From Leucosporidium creatinivorum (taxonomy: Eukaryota > Basidiomycota > Microbotryomycetes > Leucosporidiales > Leucosporidiaceae), in contig BCKL01000004.1 of assembly GCA_001600635.1 (NCBI GenBank), positions 538,044 to 602,043 on the forward strand: a DNA stretch of 64,000 nt, in the 5' to 3' direction. Below the pieces are notes generated by a model, which worked only from the letters and a program-made list of their open reading frames with translations, searched no databases and was not told where the DNA came from. Positions 49,438 to 63,957 of this stretch are shown here, in pieces (the first letter of the stretch is position 1; the number at the start of each line of letters is the position of its first letter). The position numbers were made by a program, and so were the translations under genes.

Positions 49438-50130
49438 ATGTACAACAAACCGCCTCTGAAGATGGCGACCTTCGGCGGAGGCTTCTCTACCTCAATGTGT
49501 GATGGCTGTCAGGAAGCTGTCGGACCCGGGACCAAGTTCAAAGCTCGGGTGTGTGGGCGCTGTGACACCGCTTCATAGTGAGTAGCTTCGCAGAGTGGGC
49601 GATTGAAGCTCGGCGTTAATTTCTCTTCATCCCTCTCGGCGCAGCTGCTCGGTCGAGTGTCAGCGTAAAGCGTGGTCACTCGATCACAAGCTCGAATGCA
49701 AAGCTATGGTCAAGCGGCAGCATCGACTCGACGAGCTCGCCATCTCGGAGCCTCACAAGGCGGCACTGGAAAATGCGCTGAACTACTAAGGCGCCGACAT
49801 CCTCGCCGAGGTCATTCAGATCCCTATGCGCACCCTCCACCGACTAGGACACCCCGACCAGCTCGCCCACTCTCATCTCGTACGCCTTTACTTCGACTTC
49901 GATCCGAGTGTCGGCGAATGTCTTCGCATGCGCTTCTCGTACCGCAAGTTCGACCTCATTCCATTCGAGGATGAGGAGAAGCGTCTGGCGGGACTGGAAG
50001 ATCCCAATGTCCATTTGCCGAGCTTAACGGAGAGGGAGGCCCGGAGGTTCAGCGCGACCGCTACCTCGGTGCGGGGTGAAGATAGAGATGGCGGCCGACA
50101 GGCCAATTGGCGAGTTGACTATCTTTACTC
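49438..50130 (+). pseudogene. MYND zinc-finger gene, copy A (decayed, 3' truncated)
   Basis: Exon 1 (49438..49577) and exon 2 (from 49634) encode a MYND finger: CDGC, CGRC, YCSVEC and H-x-x-x-C (HKLEC). As in the other copies, exon 1 ends in TA so that the finger tyrosine is split by the intron. The frame meets a TAA at 49787, just after the finger, yet continues open for over 100 codons with family-like sequence (HSHLVRLYFDFDP). The C-terminal DWP module found in the other copies is absent. Either a short finger-only protein survives or the gene is dead. The right edge is approximate. It is the most divergent of the five copies; no other copies share its N-terminus. Confidence 0.6.
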
Positions 50131-50672
50131 GCCCATACCGCTTTCGCTACTGACACTCGCACCACCACAGATATGCGCAAGACTTGGCTCGCGGCTTGTA
50201 GAGCGTTTCCTTGGTATTGAAACCGTTCTAGTCGTTGCGTGCGGAGGGGGACTCGAGGCAGGGCGTAGAACGACTAGAGTATCACTCTGATGATGTATCT
50301 GCTCCTCTCGCCCCCCTTCGCCTCGTCGAACCAGTGAAGACGATGGCTCATCGGATTGGCCCTTCGACGAGAGCGCCGAGAGAGCACCGAGCTGTTCCTC
50401 AATAGCAGACACGCGCTGGGAGGTCTTTCCTCGCCTTAACAGAGCTCTTGACCCCATTCTGTAGCGTGATCAGCTGCCTTGATCGACTTGACCCCTTTCC
50501 GAGTCGAGGGGAAGAGCGGCTCAACCGCCGAATCGCCTCTCTCCTTCCTACCTCATCTTGCTCGCTTCTCACCGCCCGCTCGCCCTCTCCGTCTTCCGCT
50601 GCACAGAGCTCGCTTCCTAGGACTTCTCATCATTCGTCTGGGGCCTCTTCTGCCAGCCCCCGCGTCTACGCC
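50131..50672. other. Spacer between MYND copies A and B, with leader repeat
   Basis: Degraded 3' remains of copy A, then the promoter of copy B. The segment 50489-50575 is the conserved leader described separately. Confidence 0.4.
50489..50575 (+). repeat. Conserved leader upstream of MYND copy B
   Basis: Closely similar to 52535-52620 and more weakly to 54115-54195. Shared blocks are gacccctttcc, gaagagcgg, tcaa(c/a)cgccgaat and ctcatcttgctcg. It lies ~100-180 bp before the ATG in each case, so the duplicated unit included promoter or 5' UTR. Confidence 0.7.
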
Positions 50673-51829
50673 ATGTCAAGCGCAAGTCCGAGCCCGGATA
50701 CTCCCATCAACGGCGGCGAGATGGCGAAGTCCTGCAACAACTGCCAGCGTCGCATCGGAGAGGGACCTTCGATACCAGTCCGAGTTTGTGGCAAGTGTAG
50801 ACATGTCCTGTAGTGAGCTTTCGGAGTCTTGCGATTCTGAGACGACTGAGGCTAACGCCGAACTTTTCGCAGCTGCTCTCAAGAATGCGCCGTAAGAGCT
50901 GTGCTCACCTATCTTGGGGCTCCGATTGACACTGATCGCGCTCCTCTATAATAGGTAGCGCATTGGAACCAGCATCTACCCATCTGCCGCTTCCAAAGGC
51001 AGCAAGCTCGGCTTACGGAGGAAAGCACACTTGCTCGACCGCAAGGCGCGGCTCTCGCTCAAGAACTGGAAGCCTACGCCCTATACACTCTTCCCGAGGT
51101 CATCAAGCTCGCCTGCCGCTCAGCGTTCCGCGTTGGCCAGCCAAACGATTTGTGTGATTCGCACATCTTGCAGGTCGAGCTGCTGTTCGATGAGCACGAC
51201 AAGGCACCCTCCAACATTCGACAAAGGTTCCGATTGACGCATGCCGGCATCAACTCCTACGAGTCTGTGTTGAGCTCGATGAAGAAGCGCGATCCTGAGC
51301 TGCACGATGATTTGGAAGACGACCAAGAAGCAGCTGGACAGGTCGGAGGGAAGAACCATGTCGGTCATCTTTGGCGCTCGGCAGAACAAGAGCTTGATGC
51401 ATAACCATTACGGTCAGCTCTACCGCACTGCAGTCCAGCGTACTCGGCTGATGCTCGGCGTTCCTTCACCTCGCAGTCGTTCCCTCCGTCACGATTCAGT
51501 TCGATCCTCGCGAGGATAACGTTGTACCGTGGAATGAACAAGGCTTCCTACCGGACTGGCGCCGCACCCTCGCCATGTCGCTCGCTCGACCTACCAAGCC
51601 GAGCATCATCGAGCTCATCGCCGAGGACTACGTCGGCAGTGAAATGGTGGAGGTTGCTATACTGCTGCTCATGGCTATCGGCAACTCTCCGAAGTATGCT
51701 ATCACACTTGCTGTACAGGCTACGGTACGTTTTCCCTCTGTCTCTCGGCGTAGAGGTTGAGCTGACCGTGACCTTCTCGCGCAGGATCGGCTCGCCAAGG
51801 TGCCTTCGTACGAGGTTGATGACATGTGA
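50673..51829 (+). pseudogene. MYND zinc-finger gene, copy B (one frameshift)
   Basis: Exons 50673..50812, 50873..50891, 50955..51412, 51477..51724, 51785..51829 follow the same five-exon plan as copy E, including the 19-nt second exon. The MYND finger is complete: CNNC, CGKC, YCSQEC, HLPIC. Then come CRSAFRVGQPNDLCDSHIL and the C-terminal FLPDWRRTLAMSLARP module, ending LAKVPSYEVDDM. Within exon 3, near 51310-51330, homology to the sister copies moves from one reading frame to another, so a single indel interrupts the frame; read straight through, it ends at a TAA near 51402. A sequencing error is the main alternative. The N-terminal MSSASPS is shared with copy D. Confidence 0.7.
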
Positions 51830-52722
51830 AGCACGCGGAACGCTGCCAAGGTAAGCAGTCTTACGCAGCCTCGGCTCTCGATGTCGCTAACCCGGGACTC
51901 GCTTTCCGCAGAGAACGACTTGAGGAAGGCTTCGGCGCCTCGGCGTGCAAGGAGAGAGGAAGGAGGCTGTTGCAGCAGACTAGGACTGGAAGGTGGGGAG
52001 CTGTATGGCTGTGAGCGGTACTCGACTCGGTAAGCACGAGAGGGTCAAGAGCAACAAGCTGTTGTCGTAGCAATCTAGCTCACGAGCGCCGAGCTTTCGC
52101 AATTTCGACTTCTCGGCGGACATCTCTCGCCTCCAGGAAGTGAGTAAGCTACGGTCTCACTGTCGATAGTCGTCTATAACGATCTCCGGGGAGCGATCCC
52201 TTGTCTGCACAATGGAAGGAAGGGTGAAGAAGCGCCTGCTCGGCGATGACTTGACGAGCCGAGTACGCCCTCGAGGTCGAACGGGACGCGTAGAAGGGTC
52301 GCTCCTTCCTGTGCGTGCAAGTTCGGCTCTGCTGCTGCTGTACCATACAGCGACGACCTCCTACAGGCCTGGTCTCGGCTGCGAGGCCAGCTGAGAGTCG
52401 CTGAGGAGTGGGAAGGTCGACTCGCCGAGCGGCGACACGCGCAAGGCGTCTCTCTCTGCATAGGTTATCCTAGTTGCTCGAGTAGGGTGCTCTCGGTCTG
52501 TCTCTGCGGTGACAGCCTCCCCTCGGCTTAGATGTGACCCCTTTCCAGCAGCCGAAGAGCGGATCAAACGCCGAATTGCTTCTTTCCCTCCTACTTCATC
52601 TTGCTCGTCTCTTGCCGTCTCACTGCTCGGATCGTCGCCCCGATACGCTCGCATTGTTTCCCACTCTACTCGACTACATCACTCGCACATATTCGACCGC
52701 TCTAGACTACAGTATCTGCACG
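51830..52722. other. Spacer between MYND copies B and C
   Basis: About 890 bp. The right part (52535-52620) is the conserved leader. The left part has intron-like signals but no recognisable coding sequence. Confidence 0.4.
52535..52620 (+). repeat. Conserved leader upstream of MYND copy C
   Basis: Second copy of the leader found at 50489-50575; see that entry for shared blocks. Confidence 0.7.
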
Positions 52723-53904
52723 ATGTCAGACCAGTTTCAAGGGCGAGGTCGTCCGCCGCCTGACTCGAAGGGGGTCATGTGCAACAACTGCTTCCGCTTC
52801 ATGGGCCCGGGAACGTCCACTCCCAGTCGACGATGCGGGAAGTGCCGGTCGGCCTCGTAGTGAGTACTTGGAAGCCTCCATTCAAGGGTGGAAGCCAGCG
52901 CCGAGCTCGCGCTGATCTCGATTGTCCAATAGCTGCTCGCAGGAATGCGCGGTAGGTGCCTATCAAAAGTGCGTCTCGTGAAGGCTTGCTGACTCTTCTC
53001 ACCGATAGGTCGCGAATTGGAAGGAGCATTTGCCAATGTGCCGTTTCCTGCGCAAGATCTCCGGCTTAGCGGAAGAGAACGCCCTCATGAACCCTCGTGG
53101 GCCGGCCATGCGACAAGCACTTGCAGCATACGCCGAGGAGATCAACGACGAGGTGCGCGAGCTGGCCGTCCGGTCGGCCTTTCGCGTGACCCAGCCGAAT
53201 CACCTTTGCGATACTGTTCTCCTCCAGCTCTGTTTCGAGTGGGATGACCGGCCTACCAACATTCGCCAACAGTTTACACTATGAGCCACGGGAACTCCCT
53301 CATTCCAGGAGGTCATCAATTCCAAGGAGGAGCCAATTTGCGATTTGCTGCCGTCGATGCTCGAAGCCAGGAAGCAAGCGTCGAAGCCTCCTCATGCCAA
53401 GCAGATGATCGTGCTCTTCTTCGCTAAGCACCATATCACCGAGATGCACGCGGACATCCGTACGTTCCGGCAATCTCTCCGGATCGCTCACAGCTGACCT
53501 CGGCTCTCGTCCTAGTCATACCCAGCTTCACCTACTCCATGCCTCCCTTCATCAATCCCGTCCCTCCCTACCTCGAGCAAAAGTTCATCGCCGACTGGCC
53601 TGGCACTCTCGCCATGTCCCTCGCTCGCCCCTTCAAGCCGACCGACGCCGTCCTGCTCGCCGACAATATCGTCGCGAGTGAAGGCCTGGGCACGGCCATT
53701 CGCATCATGGTGCGCTCGGGAATGACTGTCGAAGCTGCTCAAAAATCTGCTACGGAAGCTCAGGTGAGTCACTGCCTACCTTCCCCCTCTTCGAAGCGAG
53801 CTGACTCGCTGACCCTGTGCTCGCTGCTCGCTGCTCGCTGCTCGCAGAAACGGCTTGCGACCGTACCTTCTTTCGAGGTCCTTCAGTTCCGCCTAGCACA
53901 TTAG
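52723..53904 (+). pseudogene. MYND zinc-finger gene, copy C (one in-frame stop)
   Basis: Exons 52723..52859, 52933..52951, 53009..53459, 53516..53763, 53848..53904 match copy E exon by exon (137, 19, 451, 248 and 57 nt against 137, 19, 448, 248 and 81). Finger: CNNC, CGKC, YCSQEC, HLPMC. Then ELAVRSAFRVTQPNHLCD and FIADWPGTLAMSLARP, ending KRLATVPSFEV. A TGA at 53282 interrupts exon 3 in frame; sequence on both sides stays family-like, so the stop looks recent. It is the closest relative of copy E: both begin MSD and share tctgcacg just before the ATG. Without the stop's effect the gene would be 302 codons by length. Confidence 0.7.
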
Positions 53905-54294
53905 ACAGAAGCCTGAATATGCATAGAGATAAGCTATAGACCTGCAAGGAGCTGGTCTTTGCGGTCACGAACGAAACGAGCTTGCAAACATCGCCGAGCT
54001 CCGGCCTTACCTAGCGAAGAAAGAGCGAATCCCGAGGTCGAGGAGACGCAGACTGCACATGCCAAGGGCATTTCTAGAATCGTCTGAAGAGCACGGCCCC
54101 TACTCGGCTAAAGTTGGCTCCTTTGCGTCGTAGGGACGATCAGAACGAACGCCGAAACGATTCTTTCCCTCCTGATTCATCTTGCCCGCCTCGCGTCCAA
54201 TCTCACGGGCTGCCCACTCTCCACTGAGCTCGGCCTCTCTTTCTCATAAAGATCTGAAGCATATCTTGTACCTCCACCCGCGGCACTCATTGCC
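53905..54294. other. Spacer between MYND copies C and D
   Basis: 390 bp; includes the third leader copy at 54115-54195. Nothing else was recognised. Confidence 0.4.
54115..54195 (+). repeat. Conserved leader upstream of MYND copy D
   Basis: Weaker third copy of the leader: ggctcctttgcg, gatcagaacgaacgccgaa and ttctttccctcctgattcat align with the other two. Confidence 0.55.
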
Positions 54295-55487
54295 ATGTCG
54301 AGCGCAAGTCCGAGCCAGCAGTCATCGATTCCGACTCGGCCCAACGACACCTTGTGCGCTTATTGCTTCAAGACAGGGAGGAAGGCCTGCGGGAAGTGTA
54401 GAAATATCGATTAGTCAGTCACCGTTGACCGAAGTGCTGCTGTCGACTGCGCTCACCGAGCTTGCCCTCGCAGCTGTTCGCAAGAGTGTGCGGTGAGTCG
54501 ATGCGTCGGTCTTGTCGTCCCGAGCAGGTAGTCTAATCGGCTCCTTGTGAGATCAGGTAGCGCACTGGAAGCAGCATCGACCGCTTTGCCGCATGACGAG
54601 GACGTTGGTGAGAGCACAGGAGGAGCAATTCCTCGCCGAGCCCATGGGCATCGTTCTCCGAGACGACCTGGGGAGACTCGTGGAGGAGACTCTCGGCGAG
54701 GTACAGCGTCTCGGCTGTCGATCAGCCTTTCGCGTCACCCAGCCCGACCACCTCTGCGACACACATGTACTCAGGCTCGGTTTTCGCTTCGACGACCGCC
54801 CCTCCACGGTCCGCGCGAGGTTCACGCTCATTGCGGCAGCCATTGAGACCTTCGAGGCTGCTCGGGAGTCGGTGAAGCTGGTCAGCAAATCGCTGTACGA
54901 TGAATGGCCGGCGGTTCTTGAGTGAGCGCGGATCAAGCTTGATCGGTCGCTGGGGCGGCAAATGCTGGTGATATACTACGCGGAGAACAGAGATTTGCTC
55001 CATGCACATATCAGTGAGCTGCTTCTCGCTATCTGAGCCAATACCCCCTGCTGACTCTCACCTGAACGCATTGCTCGGCGCTCCCCCCTGCAAAGTCCTC
55101 CCCTCAGTGACCCTACTCCACAAGAACTTGGACAACACGGCGGTACCTCCAAAGGAGCAGAAATTCCTCCCCGACTGGCCTCGTACCCTCGCCATGTCCT
55201 TGGATCGCCTCGACACGCCTACCATCCACGAGATCCTCGCCGACGACTGGGTCGGGAGCGAGGGGACTGCTACCGCCATACGGATGATGATAGCGAGGAT
55301 GTCCACTAGATGTTGCCCAAGTTGTCGCAGACAAGGCCGAAGTGAGTTTGCTATTAAGCCGTCTCTCTCGATGACGCTGATGCTCGGCGATCTGTCGAAG
55401 GCTCGCCTCGCCACCGTCCCCTTGTTAAACGTTCGAAGCATGGCGGAACTGATGAAAGCGCGAGAAAAGCCTTCCCGGACCACGTGA
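54295..55487 (+). pseudogene. MYND zinc-finger gene, copy D (at least two breaks)
   Basis: Same exon plan (54295..54413, 54474..54492, 54557..55013, then ~55052 onward). The finger is shorter between its first two cysteine pairs (CAYCFKTGRKACGKC) but complete: YCSQEC and HRPLC. CRSAFRVTQPDHLCDTHVL and FLPDWPRTLAMSLDR follow. A TGA at 54922 interrupts exon 3, and in exon 4 near 55300-55310 homology changes frame just before the expected DVAQVVADKAE donor region. The last exon still shows KARLATVPLLNV. It is the most damaged of the copies that keep all parts. Confidence 0.68.
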
Positions 55488-55944
55488 GGCTGTACGAGGA
55501 TGCAAGGAGCTGGACTTGGACGATGAGACGAGTTGGCGAGCAGCGAGCACCGAGCGCTGAACGCCGAGGCTTGGGAGAGGGGGGCGAGGCAGCGCTTTTT
55601 GTTAGCTGCGCGGGACAGAGAACATCGGAAGCTGTGCGCTCTCGTCATCCACCGCTCGCTCTCTTTCTCATGCTCTCCGATGCCACAGGTGAGCCGCCGC
55701 CGACGCCAAAGTGCCGAAACGGGACGAGTCGCGGGGCCTTGAGAGCTGCGTAGGCGAGAGATATAGTTGCATGTAGCTCGTTACATCGAAATCGTTCTGC
55801 AAGTTGAGAGGGATGTTCATGGAGCAGCTTGAGAGCAGCTGAGCGCGAGCCGAAGCATCGCCGAGACTCTCTCTGCGCTGATCTGCGCTCTCCTGCACCC
55901 AGTCAATGCTAATAAGCTCATCCCTGTTCCCTAAACACATCAAT
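55488..55944. other. Spacer after the MYND array
   Basis: 457 bp between the end of copy D and the stop of the next minus-strand gene. No gene was recognised. Confidence 0.4.
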
Positions 55945-56847
55945 TTACTTCTTCCCCCTCTTCTTTCCTCCCGCCGCTCCCGCCTCAGCGACCGGCGTCT
56001 CCACCACCTTGGGCACAAACTCGGCCACAGCGGTCTTCTTCCTCTTCTCGCCCTCCTCCTTCTCCTTTTGCACCTTCCTCTCAGCGCTGAGCTGCTCATC
56101 CTTGATCCTGCGTGCGTCGGCCCATCCGCGAGCTTTATGGCTGATGAGAAGTTGGACGGCGATTCCAACCGCTGGAATTATAAAGGAGCTGTATTGCTCT
56201 AGGAGGGCGAGGGCCTTTTGGGAGGCGGCTTGGACGGGCTCGCTAGCTATTGAGTGGTGCCGTGCAGAGTTGACGAGAAGGCGAGGTGAGGGGACAGAGG
56301 AGCGGGAGGGTCGGCGATGGCGGTGGAGGGCGCAGGAGACATGTTGAGGGTCGGTCGAGTGTTGTAGATGTACAAGAAGATACAAAGAAGATGTTGTGAG
56401 AGTCGGTGGGATTGAGAGAGGTGCAGAAAATGTCGGAGATGGTGAAGAAGGAGGTGGCAGCCGCGGGTTGGAGACAGAAGGTAATGGGAGTGAAGTTGAG
56501 GGACGGGGTGGGAGTGCAGCGGTGCAGAATGATGTAGCGAGGAAATTCCGGGCCATGGCGGGATTGGCAGAGGTGTAGGCGATGAAATTGACGAAGGATT
56601 GCGACGCGAGTTGAGAGATGGCGAGTTGGAGCAGTCAAGATGCAGAGCATTGGGGGTGCAGCGGGTGAGATGTAGAGGAAGAGTACGATCAGCTCACGTA
56701 TCCCCGATCAGAGACCAGCAACTACGCACCGACAGCAGCCACAACGGCCTTGGCGACGGGAGACTCCGACGCCTCGAGGAAAGCGTACCCTTCCCTAGGA
56801 TAGTGAAGGACCGAGGACCAGTTGACGGCTTTGATAAGGGCGGCCAT
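55945..56847 (-). CDS. Small single-span membrane protein, basic tail
   Basis: Two exons, complement(55945..56246, 56730..56847), give 139 aa. They are joined by a 483-nt intron, the longest in the window, with a gtgcgt donor and a caatag acceptor; phases match and the joined protein reads smoothly. Residues 1-40 include HYPREGYAFLEASESP; a hydrophobic segment at ~58-75 (FIIPAVGIAVQLLI) is the likely membrane span. It is followed by a highly charged helical tail with E/K repeats (~88-110) and a GGKKRGKK end. No family was recognised with confidence. Location in mitochondria or ER is guesswork. An alternative model starting inside the intron is possible because one frame there is open. Confidence 0.65.
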
Positions 56848-57237
56848 TTTGCTGCTTTGCTTCGATGAGGTGGGAAGACGACGTGAGGGGAGGAGCGAAA
56901 GAAGTTGAGAGATGGAAGTCGAGGCTGAGAAGCGATCGACGTGTCGATGTTGAGGGATGAAGTGTGATGGTAGAGAGCTGAAGAAGCTGTGTGAATATAG
57001 CTCTACAGTCCAGAGGCGCTAATGGCCGCTCAGTCAGCTTAGAATTCGACTCTCAAGCGGGTCCGAAGCTTCGCCGAGAGGTCTTAGAAGCCGAGCGAGC
57101 CAGCTGCACCTTGGTGTAAGAGAGCGGTGATATGCCCGTCCATTCCTAGTATACGACTCTATGCTACAGTGATCCTCCTCGTCCTTCTCTGTCCCTCCTA
57201 GCGCCACAGCCTTTGGCGCCGAACCCCTCCTCGAGCA
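56848..57237. other. Upstream region of the small membrane protein gene
   Basis: 390 bp, with the 3' UTR of MDM35 on its right edge. Nothing recognisable was seen. Confidence 0.4.
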
Positions 57238-57754
57238 CTACCTCTTCAAATCCTCCTCCGTAGCGACCTTAATCCCGCCCCATCCATCCAGCGGCTCCTC
57301 TTTCCGTGCCGACTCGAGCATCGAGGGAAGGTCTTCTTTTGTTGGGATCTCGCGCTGTTTGGGGGGTTCGGCGAAGGGTCAGCTGTTGGGTTCGGCTCGG
57401 CGGTGGCCGTGCGAAGGCGTCTGGCGAGGCAGGGGACGAGCGAGAACGCACCTTTAAGCACTCCTGATAGCTCTTATAACTCGCTCCACACTCTCCCTCC
57501 AACTTCTGCTTCATCCCCTCAATCTCCTTCGCGCGCTTCTCCCGTTCCTTCTTGCCGTCTGGCGAGTCGAGGGGGTGGGCGAGCGGAGGAGAGACGAGGA
57601 TGAGGTAGGATTTGAACCACGTGTTGAAGCAGGTGTCGTAGGCGTGTTTTGAGGGGTTGCAGGAGGTGGAGAGGGAGGAGGCCTGTTGAAGCGGAGCAGA
57701 GGAGAGGTGTCAGCTGGGGGTGGAGTAGCAGAGCACAAGAGAGGGACGTACCAT
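57238..57754 (-). CDS. MDM35: Mdm35/TRIAP1-like intermembrane-space protein
   Basis: Three coding exons, complement(57238..57354, 57452..57682, 57752..57754), give 116 aa. The first coding exon holds only the ATG, followed at once by a gtacgt donor. The twin cysteine motifs of the Mdm35/TRIAP1 family are present: CNPSKHAYDTC (a CX9C) with FNTWF after it, and CGASYKSYQEC (CX9C), followed by a C-terminal LPSMLESARKEEPLDGWGG block that matches the family's conserved tail. These proteins fold by Mia40-driven oxidation in the mitochondrial intermembrane space. They chaperone Ups/PRELI lipid-transfer proteins that move phosphatidic acid or phosphatidylserine. The stretch between the two motifs is longer than in yeast. 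Confidence 0.92.
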
Positions 57755-58050
57755 GATGGGGAGCTGCTAGCTGTAGCTGAGTACGAGGAGAAGAGCGAGA
57801 GGAAGCCGAACGAGGTCTAGGGAGGGGGCGTCACGAGTGAGCGGGCGAAAGGCGGCTATCGGAGAACAGAAGTAGGCTTACAAGAGACGAGTACGAGTGC
57901 TAAACGGGTGCAGAAATGTCGAGAGTGAGAAACGAGCAGATTGAGGCGGGAGCGAAAGAGCGGCGGCCGGCGGCGCTTCCAACAAGGGTTGGCTCTCACC
58001 TCGTACTCGGCTACAAATCTCGACTTAGCGGAACGACCACAGAGTCAGAA
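57755..58050. promoter_or_regulatory. Bidirectional promoter region
   Basis: 296 bp between MDM35 (-) and the Q-rich gene (+). An in-frame ATG at 57916 could extend the latter by 45 residues. Confidence 0.35.
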
Positions 58051-59070
58051 ATGGCTTCCATTTCATTCCCAGCAGCGCCCACCCCCCTCGCTCCTGCAGC
58101 AGCAACTTCCCCCGCTCCTTCCGCTCCTCCTCCACCCCCTGCTGCCAGCTCGTCCAGCTCTGCCCTCTCGACTCCCTCGACCCAGCTTCCCTCTTCGCCT
58201 GCTGGGCTACAGAAATATCTCCACCACCGTCACCTCTCTTCCCTCCGCTCCCTGTTCGAGCTCAAGACCATCTCCTACGCTCAACAACAGCAGCAGGACC
58301 AACTTCAACGCCAGCTCAAGCGCCAAAGGAGCAGGGCAAACCAGGGAGCAGCAGGAGGGAGAGGGAGCAGATCTCGGAGGAATAGCTCCCCCGCCCCGTC
58401 TATAGCGACTACCGAGCAAGAGGATCAGCAACAGGATCAGGACCTCCTGCTCAAGCTCCGGCTCGCCAACTCGTCGTCCTCCTCCTCGGCCGACTCTCAG
58501 GCGACGACAGGCATCGACCCAGCACACGCCTACGACCTCCTCTTCGACCTCACCCCCGGCGGCGCTTCCGACGCCTACTACCATGGTCCTCATCCCCCAC
58601 CACCAGCCAAAGTCGTTCGCACCGTCCTCCGCGCCGTCCGGCAAGCACCCTTCTTCGACCCTAATGGAGTGAGCGTCGAAGCGCTGGATTCGGCTGCTCG
58701 GGAGAGTTGGAGTGCAGAGGCAGGGAAGGAGGAAGGAAGCGCCGAGACGGAGGAATGGGAGCAAGAGATGATGGCTGCCTTCTCCGGAGCTTGCGCCGAG
58801 AGGATAGGGATGGGGTTGGCGAAGCTGCCGCCTACGCAGCGGAGTAGGGAGGGCGTGCAGGCTCAGCTGCAGGTGCAGAGGGAGAGGGACGCCGCTCAGG
58901 CGCAGGCGCAGGCGGCGGCTTCGGCGCAAGCTCAAGCTCAGGCTCAGGCGCAGGCGCAGGCTCAGGCTCAGCAACAGCAACAGCAGCAGCAACAGCAACA
59001 ACAGCATGCGATGGGATCGGGTGGATACGATGCGTATGGGCAGCAGCCGTTTTGGAAGGGGATGTACTGA
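58051..59070 (+). CDS. Q/A-repeat protein, unrecognised
   Basis: Single frame of 339 aa from the ATG at 58051; an upstream in-frame ATG at 57916 exists, but its product lacks protein-like features and contains a gtgag donor-like sequence. The N-terminus is P/A/S-rich. A conserved-looking helical part, LQKYLHHRHLSSLRSLFELKTI (~50-72), is followed by a basic R-rich linker; a second folded-looking part at ~150-290 includes AYDLLFDLTP and KVVRTVLRAVRQAPFFDP. The C-terminus has an alternating QA tract and a glutamine run (~58900-59007), then GYDAYGQQPFWKGMY. The short aromatic tail is the most distinctive element. No family was recognised. Confidence 0.65.
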   Translation: MASISFPAAPTPLAPAAATSPAPSAPPPPPAASSSSSALSTPSTQLPSSPAGLQKYLHHRHLSSLRSLFELKTISYAQQQQQDQLQRQLKRQRSRANQGAAGGRGSRSRRNSSPAPSIATTEQEDQQQDQDLLLKLRLANSSSSSSADSQATTGIDPAHAYDLLFDLTPGGASDAYYHGPHPPPPAKVVRTVLRAVRQAPFFDPNGVSVEALDSAARESWSAEAGKEEGSAETEEWEQEMMAAFSGACAERIGMGLAKLPPTQRSREGVQAQLQVQRERDAAQAQAQAAASAQAQAQAQAQAQAQAQQQQQQQQQQQQHAMGSGGYDAYGQQPFWKGMY

Positions 59071-59580
59071 GCGCGAGGGAGGTGAGTTCGGAACTCGGCA
59101 TTCGTTTCGAAAGGCGTTTGGCTAACAAGCTGCTGCTCTCTTTAGACAGGAGAAGGGAGCAGCGATATATGACGCCCATCTTGTTGTAGAGCTACTTTTG
59201 GTCAGCCCCGTTTCGTGCCATTCGAGGTGAGCAGAGACCGAGAAGGAGAGAGCCAAGCGCCGAAGTTGCAGCAAAGTAAGCCGTCGAAGCGAGGGAACGC
59301 TCTGTTGGCAGCTCTAAAAGTCTCCACTTCCGCTCGTATCAGCATCCGACACCCTACTTCCCTCCTTCTCCCCTCCGCTTCGCGAGTCAAGGTCCCTCGC
59401 CGCGCCCAAGTCGCGGCTCTCCTTCTCCTGCTCACCTCGTCGTCTCGTCTCTTCTCGACTCGACAAGCGGACAGCATCTAGTCAGCTACAGCATCTAGCT
59501 GCTCTCGCTCTCTACACACCTACAGCAGACCAACAGCACCCCTTCTCCCACCCTCAAATCTTCCACACGCATCTTGAGCT
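59071..59580. other. Intergenic region with probable 3' UTR intron
   Basis: 510 bp between the Q-rich gene and FRS1. Positions 59082-59145 have a gtgagt donor, a ggctaac branch site and a tttag acceptor, so the upstream gene probably has a spliced 3' UTR. The remainder is presumptive FRS1 promoter. Confidence 0.5.
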
Positions 59581-62553
59581 AGTTCGTCCTTCGCTCTCCT
59601 CCGCGCTCGCTGGAACAGCTGGCTAATCGAGTGTATCATGCTACAGTGCCTACCATCACCGTTGACCGCGCTCTCTTCTTCGAGAAGCTGGGCAAGGAGT
59701 ACAGTCAGTCCACGAGCGCATCCTCTCCCTCGCTGCTCGTTCAGCTCGCTGATCCTTCCGCACACTCCGGCAGCTTTCGAGGAGTTCGACGAGCTTCTCT
59801 TCGAGTACGGTCTCGAGCTGGACGAGGATGTAAGCCATTCTCTTCTCCCCTTGCTCCTGCGTCCCTCGCTCACCTCACCTCGAACCCTCTGTAGACCACC
59901 AATGACCCCTCGCACCCCGCTACCGAGCCTCACCAGCTCAAGATCGAAGTCCCTGCCAACCGCTACGACTTGCTCTGCGCAGAGGGTATCGTCAGGGCTT
60001 TGAAGCTCTACTTGAACCCCGAGATTGGAGCGCCCAAGTTCAGGCTCGTCCCTGCGCCTCAGGTGAGTTGTACGAGGGTTTAGTATGAGAGCTTACAGAG
60101 CTGATCAGGTCCACTTTGTGCTGTGCGTGGAACAGGGCCAGGAGAGGACCGTGATTGTCAAGCCTGAGGTTCGTCTCTCCCTTCTCTCCGTCTCGCCCCA
60201 GCGCGAGACTAACCTCCATCTTCATTCACTGCAGACGTCGCAAATCCGCCCCTTCTTCGCCTCGGCCATCCTCCGCAACGTCACCTTCGACAAGCTCTCC
60301 TACGCCTCCTTCATCGACTTGCAGGACAAGCTCCACTCCAACCTCGCGAGGAAGAGGACCTTGGTCGCGGTGGGAACGCATGATTTGGATAAGATCGCGC
60401 CGGGGGATATTACCTACGAGGTGAGTCGGCGCTGGGTAGGGGAAGCGAGAGGAAAGGGGAGAAGCTGATGAGATTCGAACGGCACTGCACAGGCTCTTCC
60501 TCCCAAGGACATCAAGTTCGCCCCTCTCAACAAGGCGCAAGAGTACACTGGAGAGGAGATGATGACTCTGTACAAGGTTCGTCCTGTCCTCCTTCTGAGA
60601 TCTTCCTCTCGGCGCCGAGCTGACCACCCCGCGCGTCTAACAGGAGGACAAGCACCTCTCCAAGTACCTTCACATCATCGAGGACTCGCCCGTCTACCCC
60701 ATCATCTACTCGAGCACTCGTCAGGTCCTCTCCATGCCTCCCATCGTGCGTTTCGGCCGCTACCTTCTCCCCTCACGCCCGCCCCCGCTAATCTGTCTAT
60801 CTCTCTCACACTCCTCTCCTCCGCCTGTCCTTCTTGTTCGTCTGCCTATCTCTCCCTCGCCTGTGCCACCCACCATCACAGATCAACTCGAACGAGACCA
60901 AGATCTCGGTCGAGACCAAGAACGTCTTCATCGACGTTACGGCCACCGACGAGACCAAGCTCGGCTACGTCATTGACATGCTCGTTACCATGTTCTCCGA
61001 GTACTGCTCGGAGCCCTTCGCGTGAGTCGAGGCTCTTGGAAGGGACGCCGAGGGCGGAGGACGACCAAGCGCTCTCGGCGATGCTGAGGTCGAGCTCATC
61101 GCTAATACGCTCACACCTCACACAGCATCGAGCCCGTCAAGGTCGTCTACTCGGCCGGCTCCCCCTCCGGCCCCCGCACCATCCTCACCCCCAACCTTTC
61201 CCCCCGCCCCTTCGTCGCCCGCACCTCCTACATCAACTCGTGCACCGGTCTCTCCCTCTCCAAATCCTCCGTCATCTCCCTCCTTCAAAAGATGGGCCAC
61301 GAGGCACACGACCCCACTCCCGCCCAGGCTCAAACCTTCGTCGCCATCAACGCCCAGGAGAGCTTGCTCATCCCTCAGGAGGATCTGATCCACGTTCTCG
61401 TGCCCGCGAACCGACCGGATATCCTTCACGAGTGTGATATTATGGAGGATGCGGCGGTGGCGTATGGATTTAACAACCTCAAGAGGACGTTCCCTCCTAC
61501 TAGCACTGTCGCCAAGCCCTTCCCTCCCAACAAGCTCAGTGATACGATCAGGAGGCTGTGCGCCGAGGCTGGATGGGTCGAGGTATTGCCGTTGATTCTG
61601 GTGAGTTTCTTGCGTTCGCCCCGAGGAGGAGGGCGGGCACCGAGCCGAGTCGAGCCGAGCTGACCTCGCCCGACATCCACACCACCAGTGCTCCCACGAC
61701 GAGAACTTCAAATTCCTCAACCGCGTCGACCCCGGAACCCTCGCCGTCGTCCTGGCCAACCCCAAGACGATCGAATACCAAATCGTCCGCACCTCGCTCC
61801 TCCCCGGCATGCTCAAGACCATCCGCGAGAACAGGAAGCACGCGCTCCCTCTTCGGATCTTCGAGGTCAGCGATGTGGTCGTCAAGGACTCGAGGGAGGA
61901 GAGGCAGGCGAGGAATGTGAGGAGGGTGGGAGCTGTCTTCTGTGGAAGGAGGGCGGGCTTTGAAGTCGTCCATGGGCTGTTGGATAGGTTGATGCTCGGG
62001 TTGGGCATCAGGAATCTGGGGAATGCGGACAGTGAGGGAGAGAGTGGGTACTACATCAAGAGCTGCGATGGTGAGTCTCGATTTCTCTCTCCTTCTCGTC
62101 GCTGCCTCGCTGACCCTCCTTCCTTCCTTCCCTCCTTCCCCGCCTCTCCGCGTCGATTCGAACTCACGACCAGACGCCACCTACTTCCCTAACCGCTCCG
62201 CCAAGATCGTCTACCGCCCCCCTCTCGTCGCCGGCGCGCACATCACCTTCGCCCCCGTCGCCTCAGCCGACGCCTCGAACGCGTCCGCTGCTGCTCCCAC
62301 TTCCGCTCCCGCCACTCCCGCCGCCACTTCGGAGGAGAAGGAGGAGAAGAAGGGACCTCTCGACACTATCAAGTCGTCGCTGCAGAACGTCCTCCCCGGT
62401 CACCACCACAAGGAGGAGAAGAAGGTTGAGAAGGTCGCGAGCAGGGACGTCGAGATTGGAGAGATTGGTATCCTTCACCCTTCGGTGCTCAAGGCGTACG
62501 AGTTGGACTTCCCGTGCTCGAGTCTCGAGTTTGATATCGAGCAGTTCCTTTAG
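59581..62553 (+). CDS. FRS1: Cytosolic phenylalanyl-tRNA synthetase beta subunit
   Basis: Twelve exons, 59581, 59647..59703, 59774..59829, 59895..60062, 60136..60168, 60235..60420, 60493..60576, 60644..60745, 60882..61021, 61126..61600, 61689..62070, 62174..62553, sum to 688 codons (687 aa). The expected start MPTITVD requires a split start codon: A at 59581, TG at 59647. Family blocks: [38 protein letters not shown]3/B4 region, the B5 domain, [22 protein letters not shown], and the catalytic-like core with [27 protein letters not shown]. It pairs with the alpha subunit to charge tRNA-Phe. Near the C-terminus an A/P/T-rich then K/E-rich insertion of about 66 residues (590-655) splits the final [11 protein letters not shown] block. 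Yeast Frs1 is 595 aa, so the insertion explains most of the extra length. Confidence 0.95.
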
Positions 62554-62767
62554 AGGGTTCGCTTGCTGGAGGCAGGAGTCAAGATGTAAAGAATGAGATC
62601 GCCCATCTCGTATCGGCTGTTCCAGGTGATTAGTGAGAGGTGAGAGCGCAGAGAGCGGGGCAGCGTTCTCTTCCAATCGCCTTGCCGCCAATCTCGGTGC
62701 TCGGCGATCGCCTGGGAGTGCTGTGGCGTCGAAGACCAGCTTCCAACACAGCTACAGAGGGAGCAGG
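62554..62767. other. Convergent 3' region
   Basis: 214 bp between the FRS1 stop and the stop of MYND copy E. Nothing recognisable was seen. Confidence 0.4.
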
Positions 62768-63957
62768 CTAATCATAAAAATACTTGATCGTCGGGTCGTC
62801 TGTCTTCAGTGGGATGATGTAAAAGGAAGGGACGGCGACGAGTTGGGACTTAAGGAGGAGAGAGAAGGTCAGCAAGTCGACCTGCTGCTCGCAGAGGAGC
62901 CCGACTCACTTGCGCTCTTTTTGCAAACCTAGGAGCCTCCACCGCACTCGTTCCAGCCCTCATCATCACCCGAATGGCTTTGGCGAAGCCTTCGCTTGCG
63001 ACGAGCGACTCGACGAAGACCTCGTCCTCTGTCGGCTGGACAGGGCGAGCTAGAGACATGGCAAGCGTGCGAGGCCAGTCGGGAATGAAGTTTTGGTGCA
63101 GATATGGGATGATGGGGTTGGCGTGCATTGCCAAGGTGTATGAGAAAAGTGGCTTGACTGCGAAGGGTCGAGAGAGAGAGATTAGCGGAGAGCTTCAACT
63201 GCGAGAGACGGCAGAGCCTACAGAGGCTGACGTTGACGGCGGCTCGGCGGTGCTGTGCGCAGAAGCACACGACCATCGAAAGAGCTCCTTCGGGCAAGGC
63301 CGTTTCTTCCCTCGTCTCCACCATCGTCGGCAGAGCGTCGCGCCACGAGACTTCCGCGCTCATCACCTCCTCATGTGAGAACAAGCCCGTTCCAAAGAGC
63401 GTGAAGCGCCGGCGAATGTTTGCAGGCTCGGGGTCCCAGTCGAAAGACAAACGGAGATGATGCGAGTGCCGGAGATGATCCGGCTGAGTGATGCGGAAGG
63501 CTGACCGAGCGGCGAGCTCGCGCACTTCACCATGAACCTCTATGGCGTATGTGTTCAGATCCTTGCGCATGGCGTCGAATGTAGGACTCCTGAGAGCGAC
63601 TTCCTCCCGCCGCTGCTGGGTCGTTTGCAGATAGCGGCACGACGACAGATGCTGCTTCCAGTTGGTGACCTGTGCGACAGAGGAGAGTCAGTACAGGATC
63701 CTGGGAGAGCCCTGAGGGGCTCAACGAAGTCACCAGCTCCTTACTGCACACTCCTGCGAGCAACTGCCGAACTTGAGGGTCAGTAACGCTCTCGAATCGG
63801 TTCGGAGCCGTTGTACTCACTACGAGACAGCCCTGCACTTGCCACACTTCCGCCTTGGAATAGGTGTCCCTTCACCTATACGTTTGAAGCAGTTCGTGCA
63901 TCCGAGGCCGGCAGTCTCTTCAGGCGGCAGTGGTGGTTTGTGGACCTCGTCTGACAT
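62768..63957 (-). CDS. MYND zinc-finger protein, copy E (intact)
   Basis: Five exons, complement(62768..62848, 62910..63157, 63222..63669, 63745..63763, 63821..63957), sum to 311 codons (310 aa) with no break. Residues ~20-62 form a MYND finger: CTNC, CGKC, YCSQEC, and H-x-x-x-C (HLSSC). The middle (~65-200) contains ELAARSAFRITQPDHL and an FDWDPEPANIRRRFTL block. The C-terminal module has FIPDWPRTLAMSLARP and ASEGFAKAIRVMMRAG, ending near AVPSFYI. The last exon is longer than in the sisters. MYND fingers mediate protein contacts, often with PxLxP motifs; no SET or other enzyme domain is visible. It is on the opposite strand, 7.3 kb from the decayed array, and is the reference for their exon plan. 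Confidence 0.85.

What the first reader, a model, noticed from the sequence alone, without database searches (positions are those of the whole stretch)
49438..63957. Local family of five MYND zinc-finger genes: four decayed in tandem, one intact
Copies A-D (+) and E (-) share a MYND finger. B-E also share a 19-nt second exon, identical intron phases, and nearly equal exon lengths. Only E reads through unbroken. This is the footprint of a birth-and-death gene family with fast local turnover, as seen for recognition or conflict genes in fungi; the conflict idea is inference.
Basis: partly seen in the sequence, partly recalled or inferred. Interest (0 to 1): 0.72.

Follow-up and report, generated by a model that had tools for sequence, protein, structure and literature searches.

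The report
Ageing family of MYND zinc-finger genes
A fungal chromosome carries a cluster of old, related zinc-finger genes of which most copies have recently broken and one still looks whole; they belong to a much larger family scattered over the genome, of a kind already known to vary in number between related yeasts.

Summary
Largely right, but framed too small. B-E are real paralogs with a split MYND finger, a 19-nt second exon and intron phases 2,0,1,0; A-D are broken, E reads through. Corrections: A is a distant paralog; the local clade is B-G, with F and G just beyond the window and also broken. The family has at least 43 places in this genome. The 19-nt exon occurs in 24 of 32 modelled members on four contigs, so it marks the family, not local duplication. 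'Fast local turnover' is unsupported on the birth side: the closest of 32 copies differ by dS 0.79, while lesions are few per copy and differ between copies. Close pairs have dN/dS 0.23-0.34; no sign of diversifying selection. The conflict idea is untested. Variable MYND numbers in Microbotryomycetes are in print (PMC4469406, PMC10662464). New detail: between C and E the upstream sequence is better conserved than the genes. Verdict: an ordinary multigene family, real, mildly interesting.

The parts
49438..50113 (+). Copy A: distant MYND paralog, exon 1 49438-49577, fused exon from 49645, stop TAA 49787-49789, later exons not aligned
50673..51829 (+). Copy B: exons 50673-50812, 50873-50891 (19 nt), 50955-51412, 51477-51724, 51785-51829; one frameshift at about 51348-51354
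52723..53904 (+). Copy C: exons 52723-52859, 52933-52951 (19 nt), 53009-53459, 53516-53763, 53848-53904; TGA 53282-53284
54295..55487 (+). Copy D: exons 54295-54413, 54474-54492 (19 nt), 54557-55013, 55096-55341, 55401-55487; TGA 54923-54925 and frameshift near 55296
   Evidence: bridge the TGA by an intron instead
62768..63957 (-). Copy E, intact: exons 63957-63821, 63763-63745 (19 nt), 63669-63222, 63157-62910, 62848-62768; 310 aa
50488..50579 (+). Conserved upstream module of B (85% to that of G), no sign of coding
52535..52611 (+). Conserved upstream module of C (90% to that of G), no sign of coding
54135..54192 (+). Weaker version of the upstream module at D (79% to C over 58 bases)
52395..52734 (+). 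Tract upstream of C and through its start codon, 83.9% identical over 341 aligned bases to the stretch upstream of E (E's side runs past the window end); similarity drops at about base +12 of the gene

Best explanation
This is a small cluster inside an old, lineage-expanded fungal gene family. Each gene encodes an N-terminal MYND zinc finger spread over three exons, the middle one of 19 nt, followed by a region of roughly 100 residues that no Pfam family claims and a shorter conserved C-terminal part. Shown here: copies duplicated long ago, diverged under purifying selection on average, and several now carry separate, few lesions; E is the only one of seven neighbours without one. Inferred: the lesions are recent losses; the proteins act inside the cell as protein-interaction adaptors through the MYND finger, as other MYND proteins do (recalled), and are redundant enough for single copies to be lost; B-G share a promoter element, the conserved 80-100 bases that end roughly 90-110 bases before the start codon.
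For: At least 43 homologous places in the genome. Same small exon in 24 of 32 modelled copies. B-G one clade, support 94/90, which the tool marks as neither shown nor rejected; F+G 95/89. dS 0.91 or more with dN/dS 0.24-0.45 in 14 of 15 B-G pairs, the last saturated. Lesions differ in place or kind between copies. Random change of E's coding sequence gives on average 1.5 stops at 0.05 changes per site and 11.4 at 0.9 (300 runs each), against none or one stop in each B-G copy. Error control: the PheRS beta gene between D and E, exon borders set by hand, joins 11 exons into 686 residues with no lesion that align to human PheRS beta over 1-575 and 650-686 (E 3.6e-158). Copy numbers of zf-MYND vary widely within Rhodotorula (mean 24.7, SD 15.1, 7 in R. 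sphaerocarpa; PMC10662464, passage).
Against: Adaptor function is not shown; there are no expression, binding or phenotype data. The post-MYND region has no named domain and its model is poor (mean pLDDT 54.4). Single lesions could in part be strain-specific or sequencing artefacts; one, in C7_526, sits in a run of G. D is free of lesions under other aligner settings. 11 of 43 places were not modelled, so young duplicates among them are not excluded. dS near or above 1 is imprecise. B and D were searched for lesions over their whole length, the 25 distant copies over the conserved first part; in 12 of those the E-only run also printed frameshifts or a stop outside that part, which I set aside as misfit of a distant profile, and C29_110's frame closes 369 nt into exon 3, also not counted. 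If some are real, more copies are dead and decay is older than I say.
Confidence: 0.7

Rival explanations
1. The family is a recognition or conflict repertoire (self/non-self or anti-parasite), copies being lost as their targets vanish.
For: Clustered, lineage-expanded, many broken copies; a MYND protein, het-Va, is an allorecognition gene in Podospora (PMC9262711, passages).
Against: The five closest pairs printed show dN/dS 0.23-0.34; no pair of modelled copies under dS 0.79; Pfam finds only zf-MYND in E.
Confidence: 0.1
2. The lesions are sequencing or assembly errors and most copies are intact.
For: Most broken copies carry one recognised lesion; one lies in a homopolymer.
Against: 686 codons of PheRS beta between D and E without a lesion; E and 17 of the other 31 modelled copies show no confident lesion, one of them uncertain; several lesions are base substitutions to stops or splice-site changes rather than indels.
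Confidence: 0.08
3. The broken copies still work, by stop read-through, alternative splicing or as truncated proteins or regulatory RNAs.
For: Little further decay recognised; upstream module kept at broken B, C, D, F and G; D's TGA lies inside a splice-donor-like GTGAGC, and runs with a lower intron cost spliced there.
Against: That intron would remove residues conserved in C, and a run with the clade profile and higher intron cost did not use it; lesions are of different kinds and places; low decay is also what recent death predicts.
Confidence: 0.12

Closest known systems
Expansion of zf-MYND (PF01753) genes in Microbotryomycetes (Perlin et al. 2015, PMC4469406; Rhodotorula comparison, PMC10662464)
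   Same: Fungal genomes with many and variable numbers of MYND genes: 7 in Microbotryum lychnidis-dioicae, 11 in S. roseus, 26 in R. glutinis; mean 24.7, SD 15.1 over Rhodotorula strains (passages)
   Different: The passages I saw give domain counts; gene layout, clusters, lesions and upstream module are not in them. This genome gives 88 exon matches to PF01753, none of them on contig C4, where the finger is split. That the window's organism belongs to this class is my inference, not tested.
Fuz1, MYND protein of Ustilago maydis (cited in PMC7409079, passages)
   Same: Basidiomycete MYND protein; cell morphogenesis
   Different: Listed there with one identifier per smut genome; not compared by sequence here
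het-Va of Podospora anserina (PMC9262711, passages)
   Same: Contains a MYND finger and works in fungal conflict
   Different: SET and Rubisco-LSMT domains with a C-terminal MYND; Pfam finds only zf-MYND in E
SMYD lysine methyltransferases
   Same: Weak sequence match of E confined to the MYND finger (best E-value 0.059)
   Different: No SET domain found in E

Membership tests
zf-MYND proteins (PF01753) | Pfam score above curated cut-off | tested here: met
   E 34.3 bits, cut-off 22.7; A-D not scanned because their fingers are split or broken
zf-MYND proteins (PF01753) | Zinc-binding Cys/His pattern present | tested here: met
   Paired cysteines and final His/Cys visible by eye in B-E and in many of the 32 rows; a few rows lack some; pattern itself recalled
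SMYD / SET-MYND | SET domain | tested here: not met
   Only zf-MYND found in E at E up to 1
Birth-and-death multigene family | Clustered paralogs with intact and broken members | tested here: met
Birth-and-death multigene family | Recent duplicates (continuing birth) | tested here: inconclusive
   None among 32 modelled copies, smallest dS 0.79 of 496 pairs; 11 of 43 places not modelled; identical copies could be collapsed in the assembly
Birth-and-death multigene family | Copy number differs between related species | not testable with these tools
   No fungal relatives held; published counts for Rhodotorula vary (PMC10662464)
Fungal allorecognition (het) genes | Balancing or diversifying selection | tested here: inconclusive
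   Pairwise dN/dS 0.23-0.34 in the five closest pairs printed; site-wise or population tests not done
Fungal allorecognition (het-Va type) | SET and Rubisco-LSMT domains with MYND | tested here: not met

The most novel reading that the evidence does not exclude
A clustered MYND repertoire whose members keep or exchange a common control region (341 aligned bases, 84% identical between C and E up to the start codon, while coding dS is about 1.5) as the proteins diverge: promoter exchange by gene conversion with its edge at the start codon, so that diverged proteins stay under one switch, in a family now shrinking by independent losses.
Probability: 0.15. Interest if true: 0.5.

Novelty: new member of a known kind. 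Interest (0 to 1): 0.27.

Why it matters
It gives a concrete anatomy to a gene count that comparative papers list: a lineage-expanded MYND family with a shared layout, a companion region without a Pfam match, old duplicates and apparently recent losses. If the shared upstream tract is promoter exchange, it would be a tractable case of how a diverged family stays co-regulated. It also corrects the claim of fast turnover: the losses look young, the modelled copies are not.

Tried and rejected
Rejected: local family of five (A is outside the clade, F and G belong; the clade's support of 94/90 is short of the tool's mark). Rejected: 19-nt exon as a mark of recent local duplication. Rejected: changed genetic code; lesions include TAA, TGA, TAG, frameshifts and splice sites at unrelated positions. 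Rejected: upstream module as a coding exon; variable columns fall 10/11/11 over the three codon positions, 27 columns each, five copies. Rejected: decay concentrated in this cluster. 6 of 7 local against 8 of 25 elsewhere gives p 0.027, but B and D were scored over more sequence; over the same stretch 4 of 7 against 8 of 25 gives p 0.38. The 4 include C, whose TGA falls just after the last aligned column. An earlier test with 7 and with 9 of 25 is; the count became 8 because the same call showed an extra base in C10_596, and C1_764 stays uncertain.

Led nowhere: PF00118 as an error control, because matches run across introns, so I used PheRS beta instead; fold of E exon 3 (mean pLDDT 54.4), so no fold search was made; profile search of the post-MYND region in PDB (best E 0.063, to SMYD2 outside its finger) and Pfam (six families, one member each, best E 0.0026); literature searches for MYND with birth-and-death (0 papers) and allorecognition (4 papers, one used).

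Not settled: identity of the organism; taken for a fungus, probably basidiomycete, from gene content and introns (recalled).
Full report
What was checked. The window lies at G000:C4 538044-602043 of an unnamed 27.7 Mb genome in 63 contigs. I rebuilt the five genes from sequence, then wrote a splice-aware protein-to-DNA aligner that allows frameshifts and stops at a cost and a variant that also allows non-canonical splice sites.

The genes. E reads through as 310 residues in five exons of 137, 19, 448, 248 and 81 nt and carries one Pfam domain, zf-MYND (34.3 bits, cut-off 22.7). B, C and D have the same layout, with phases 2, 0, 1, 0. A is broken by a TAA (49787-49789), B by a frameshift near 51350, C by a TGA (53282-53284), D by a TGA (54923-54925) and a frameshift near 55296. 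For D the result depends on settings: with a lower intron cost the aligner put an intron over the TGA and reported no lesion. A lacks intron 2 and its later exons were not aligned. Beyond the window, F (exon 3 at 603 kb, minus strand) has a one-base lesion at the end of exon 1 and G (610 kb, plus strand) a TGA. So six of seven neighbours are broken and E is the exception.

The family. tblastn with E exon 3 finds 37 places in the genome. Four further queries from diverged members add more; merged by hand they give 43 places (25 on contig C4, 9 on C29, 4 on C10, 3 on C7, 1 each on C33 and C1) and 3 weak ones on C3 and C5. I modelled 32 of the 43: the 30 loci (L009-L038) and two fetched regions (L042, L043). 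24 of the 32 have the 19-nt exon with phases 2 to 0, on C4, C7, C29 and C33; 4 have exons 2 and 3 fused; 3 on C10 have an 8-nt exon instead; 1 (C1) is unclear. The small exon is therefore a family trait.

Lesions elsewhere. Of the 25 modelled copies outside the cluster I count 8 with a confident lesion: C29_199 (TAG), C33_133 (TGA and a changed donor), C4_727 (frameshift), C4_729 (changed donor), C4_411 (changed acceptor), C7_524 (TGA and frameshift), C7_526 (frameshift in a run of G) and C10_596 (one extra base in the finger). C1_764 is uncertain. C29_185 has a GC donor, which I accept as working. With the 6 local ones this makes 14 of 32. Set aside: in 12 distant copies, with the E profile alone, printed frameshifts or a stop outside the conserved stretch, where that profile fits badly; and C29_110's frame closes 369 nt into exon 3. 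The true number of broken copies may be higher. The excess in the local cluster is not firm: 6 of 7 against 8 of 25 gives p 0.027, but over the same stretch 4 of 7 against 8 of 25 gives p 0.38.

Age and selection. The tree of 32 rows over 131 columns joins B-G with support 94/90 and F with G at 95/89; A is elsewhere. Many deep branches are weak and end branches long. Among B-G, dS is 0.91 for F-G and higher or saturated otherwise, with dN/dS of 0.24-0.45 in 14 of 15 pairs; by segment single values reach 0.61. Over all 496 pairs of modelled copies the smallest dS is 0.79 (C4_729 with C4_765) and 155 pairs are saturated. Of the 14 lowest-dS pairs printed, the five with amino-acid identity of 52% or more have dN/dS 0.23-0.34; the nine others, at 26-39% identity, have 0.66-0.81, which I put down to unreliable dS. 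Births among the modelled copies are thus old; 11 places were not modelled and could hold younger pairs. Deaths look recent: mutating E's coding sequence at random gives on average 1.5 stops at 0.05 changes per site, 5.0 at 0.2 and 11.4 at 0.9, while each B-G copy carries none or one.

Error control. The PheRS beta gene between D and E joins, with exon borders set by hand, 11 exons into 686 residues and a stop, with GT donors and AG acceptors at its ten introns and no lesion. The protein aligns to human PheRS beta from residue 2 to its end, except for one long unaligned insert near the end (E 3.6e-158). A second control with PF00118 could not be read because matches cross introns.

Upstream sequence. 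A DNA search with 98 bases upstream of G finds four places in the genome: G itself and the stretches upstream of E, B and C, 85-90% identical over 77-92 bases. D and F carry weaker versions. Codon-phase counts give no sign of coding (10/11/11 variable columns of 27 each). Between C and E the likeness extends over 341 aligned bases at 83.9%, ending about 12 bases into the gene; by stretch it is 95% in the module, 84-92% from there to base +12, 66-76% further upstream, 44-64% in exons other than the 19-nt one (79%), and 47-57% in introns, against 37-47% for 12 shuffled comparisons. Between F and G the module is 77% alike, little more than their exon 4 (75%), with the rest of the upstream stretch near the shuffled level and the other exons compared at 53-60%. 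Conserved promoter or local gene conversion would both fit; I cannot separate them.

Function. MYND fingers bind short peptide motifs in partner proteins (recalled). The region after the finger matches no Pfam family in more than one of 24 members, best E 0.0026, and no solved structure convincingly (best E 0.063). The AlphaFold model of E exon 3, from six short rows, has mean pLDDT 54.4 and was not used. Adaptor function is inference.

Known work. Perlin et al. 2015 (PMC4469406, passages) list zf-MYND in a table of expanded or depleted domains: 7, 11 and 26 genes in three Microbotryomycetes, 3 in Mixia, 7 and 4 in two rusts, with p 5e-8 in the column headed Pucciniales comparison. A Rhodotorula study (PMC10662464, passage) gives a mean of 24.7 with SD 15.1 and 7 in R. 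sphaerocarpa. In a Microbotryum hybrid study the first two columns, which I take for the parent species, read 7 and 7 (PMC7499883, passage). I found no description of this gene layout or cluster in the listings of searches, which cover one library of open papers; I opened six of the listed papers, for passages only.

Verdict. Real, correctly spotted, but a part of a larger and older family; ordinary in kind, with the upstream tract as the one detail worth following. On checking, I lowered the main confidence slightly (0.72 to 0.70) and raised the rival of still-working copies (0.10 to 0.12) because D's lesions depend on aligner settings.

Noticed in passing
G000:C6 957-1208 kb, read at L041:900-1600: Another MYND family in head-to-head pairs; in the one pair read the two start codons are under about 150 bases apart, and the MYND exons of several such pairs start about 240 bases apart.
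   Followed up: partly
G000:C31 20-272 kb, C11, C10, C44; L002-L008: A second MYND type with the finger at the end of a long exon, many on C31 in divergent pairs about 2.3 kb apart; L005 and L006, 30 kb apart and inverted, look nearly identical by eye, so this type may have a young duplicate.
   Followed up: partly
window 55846-55999 and G000:C4 between E and F: A 150-base stretch near the end of the gene downstream of D recurs at 74% between F and E, so neighbouring sequence was probably duplicated along with the genes.
   Followed up: partly
L032, L033, L037 (C10): In three C10 members the small second exon is 8 nt instead of 19, with the first intron in another phase.
   Followed up: no
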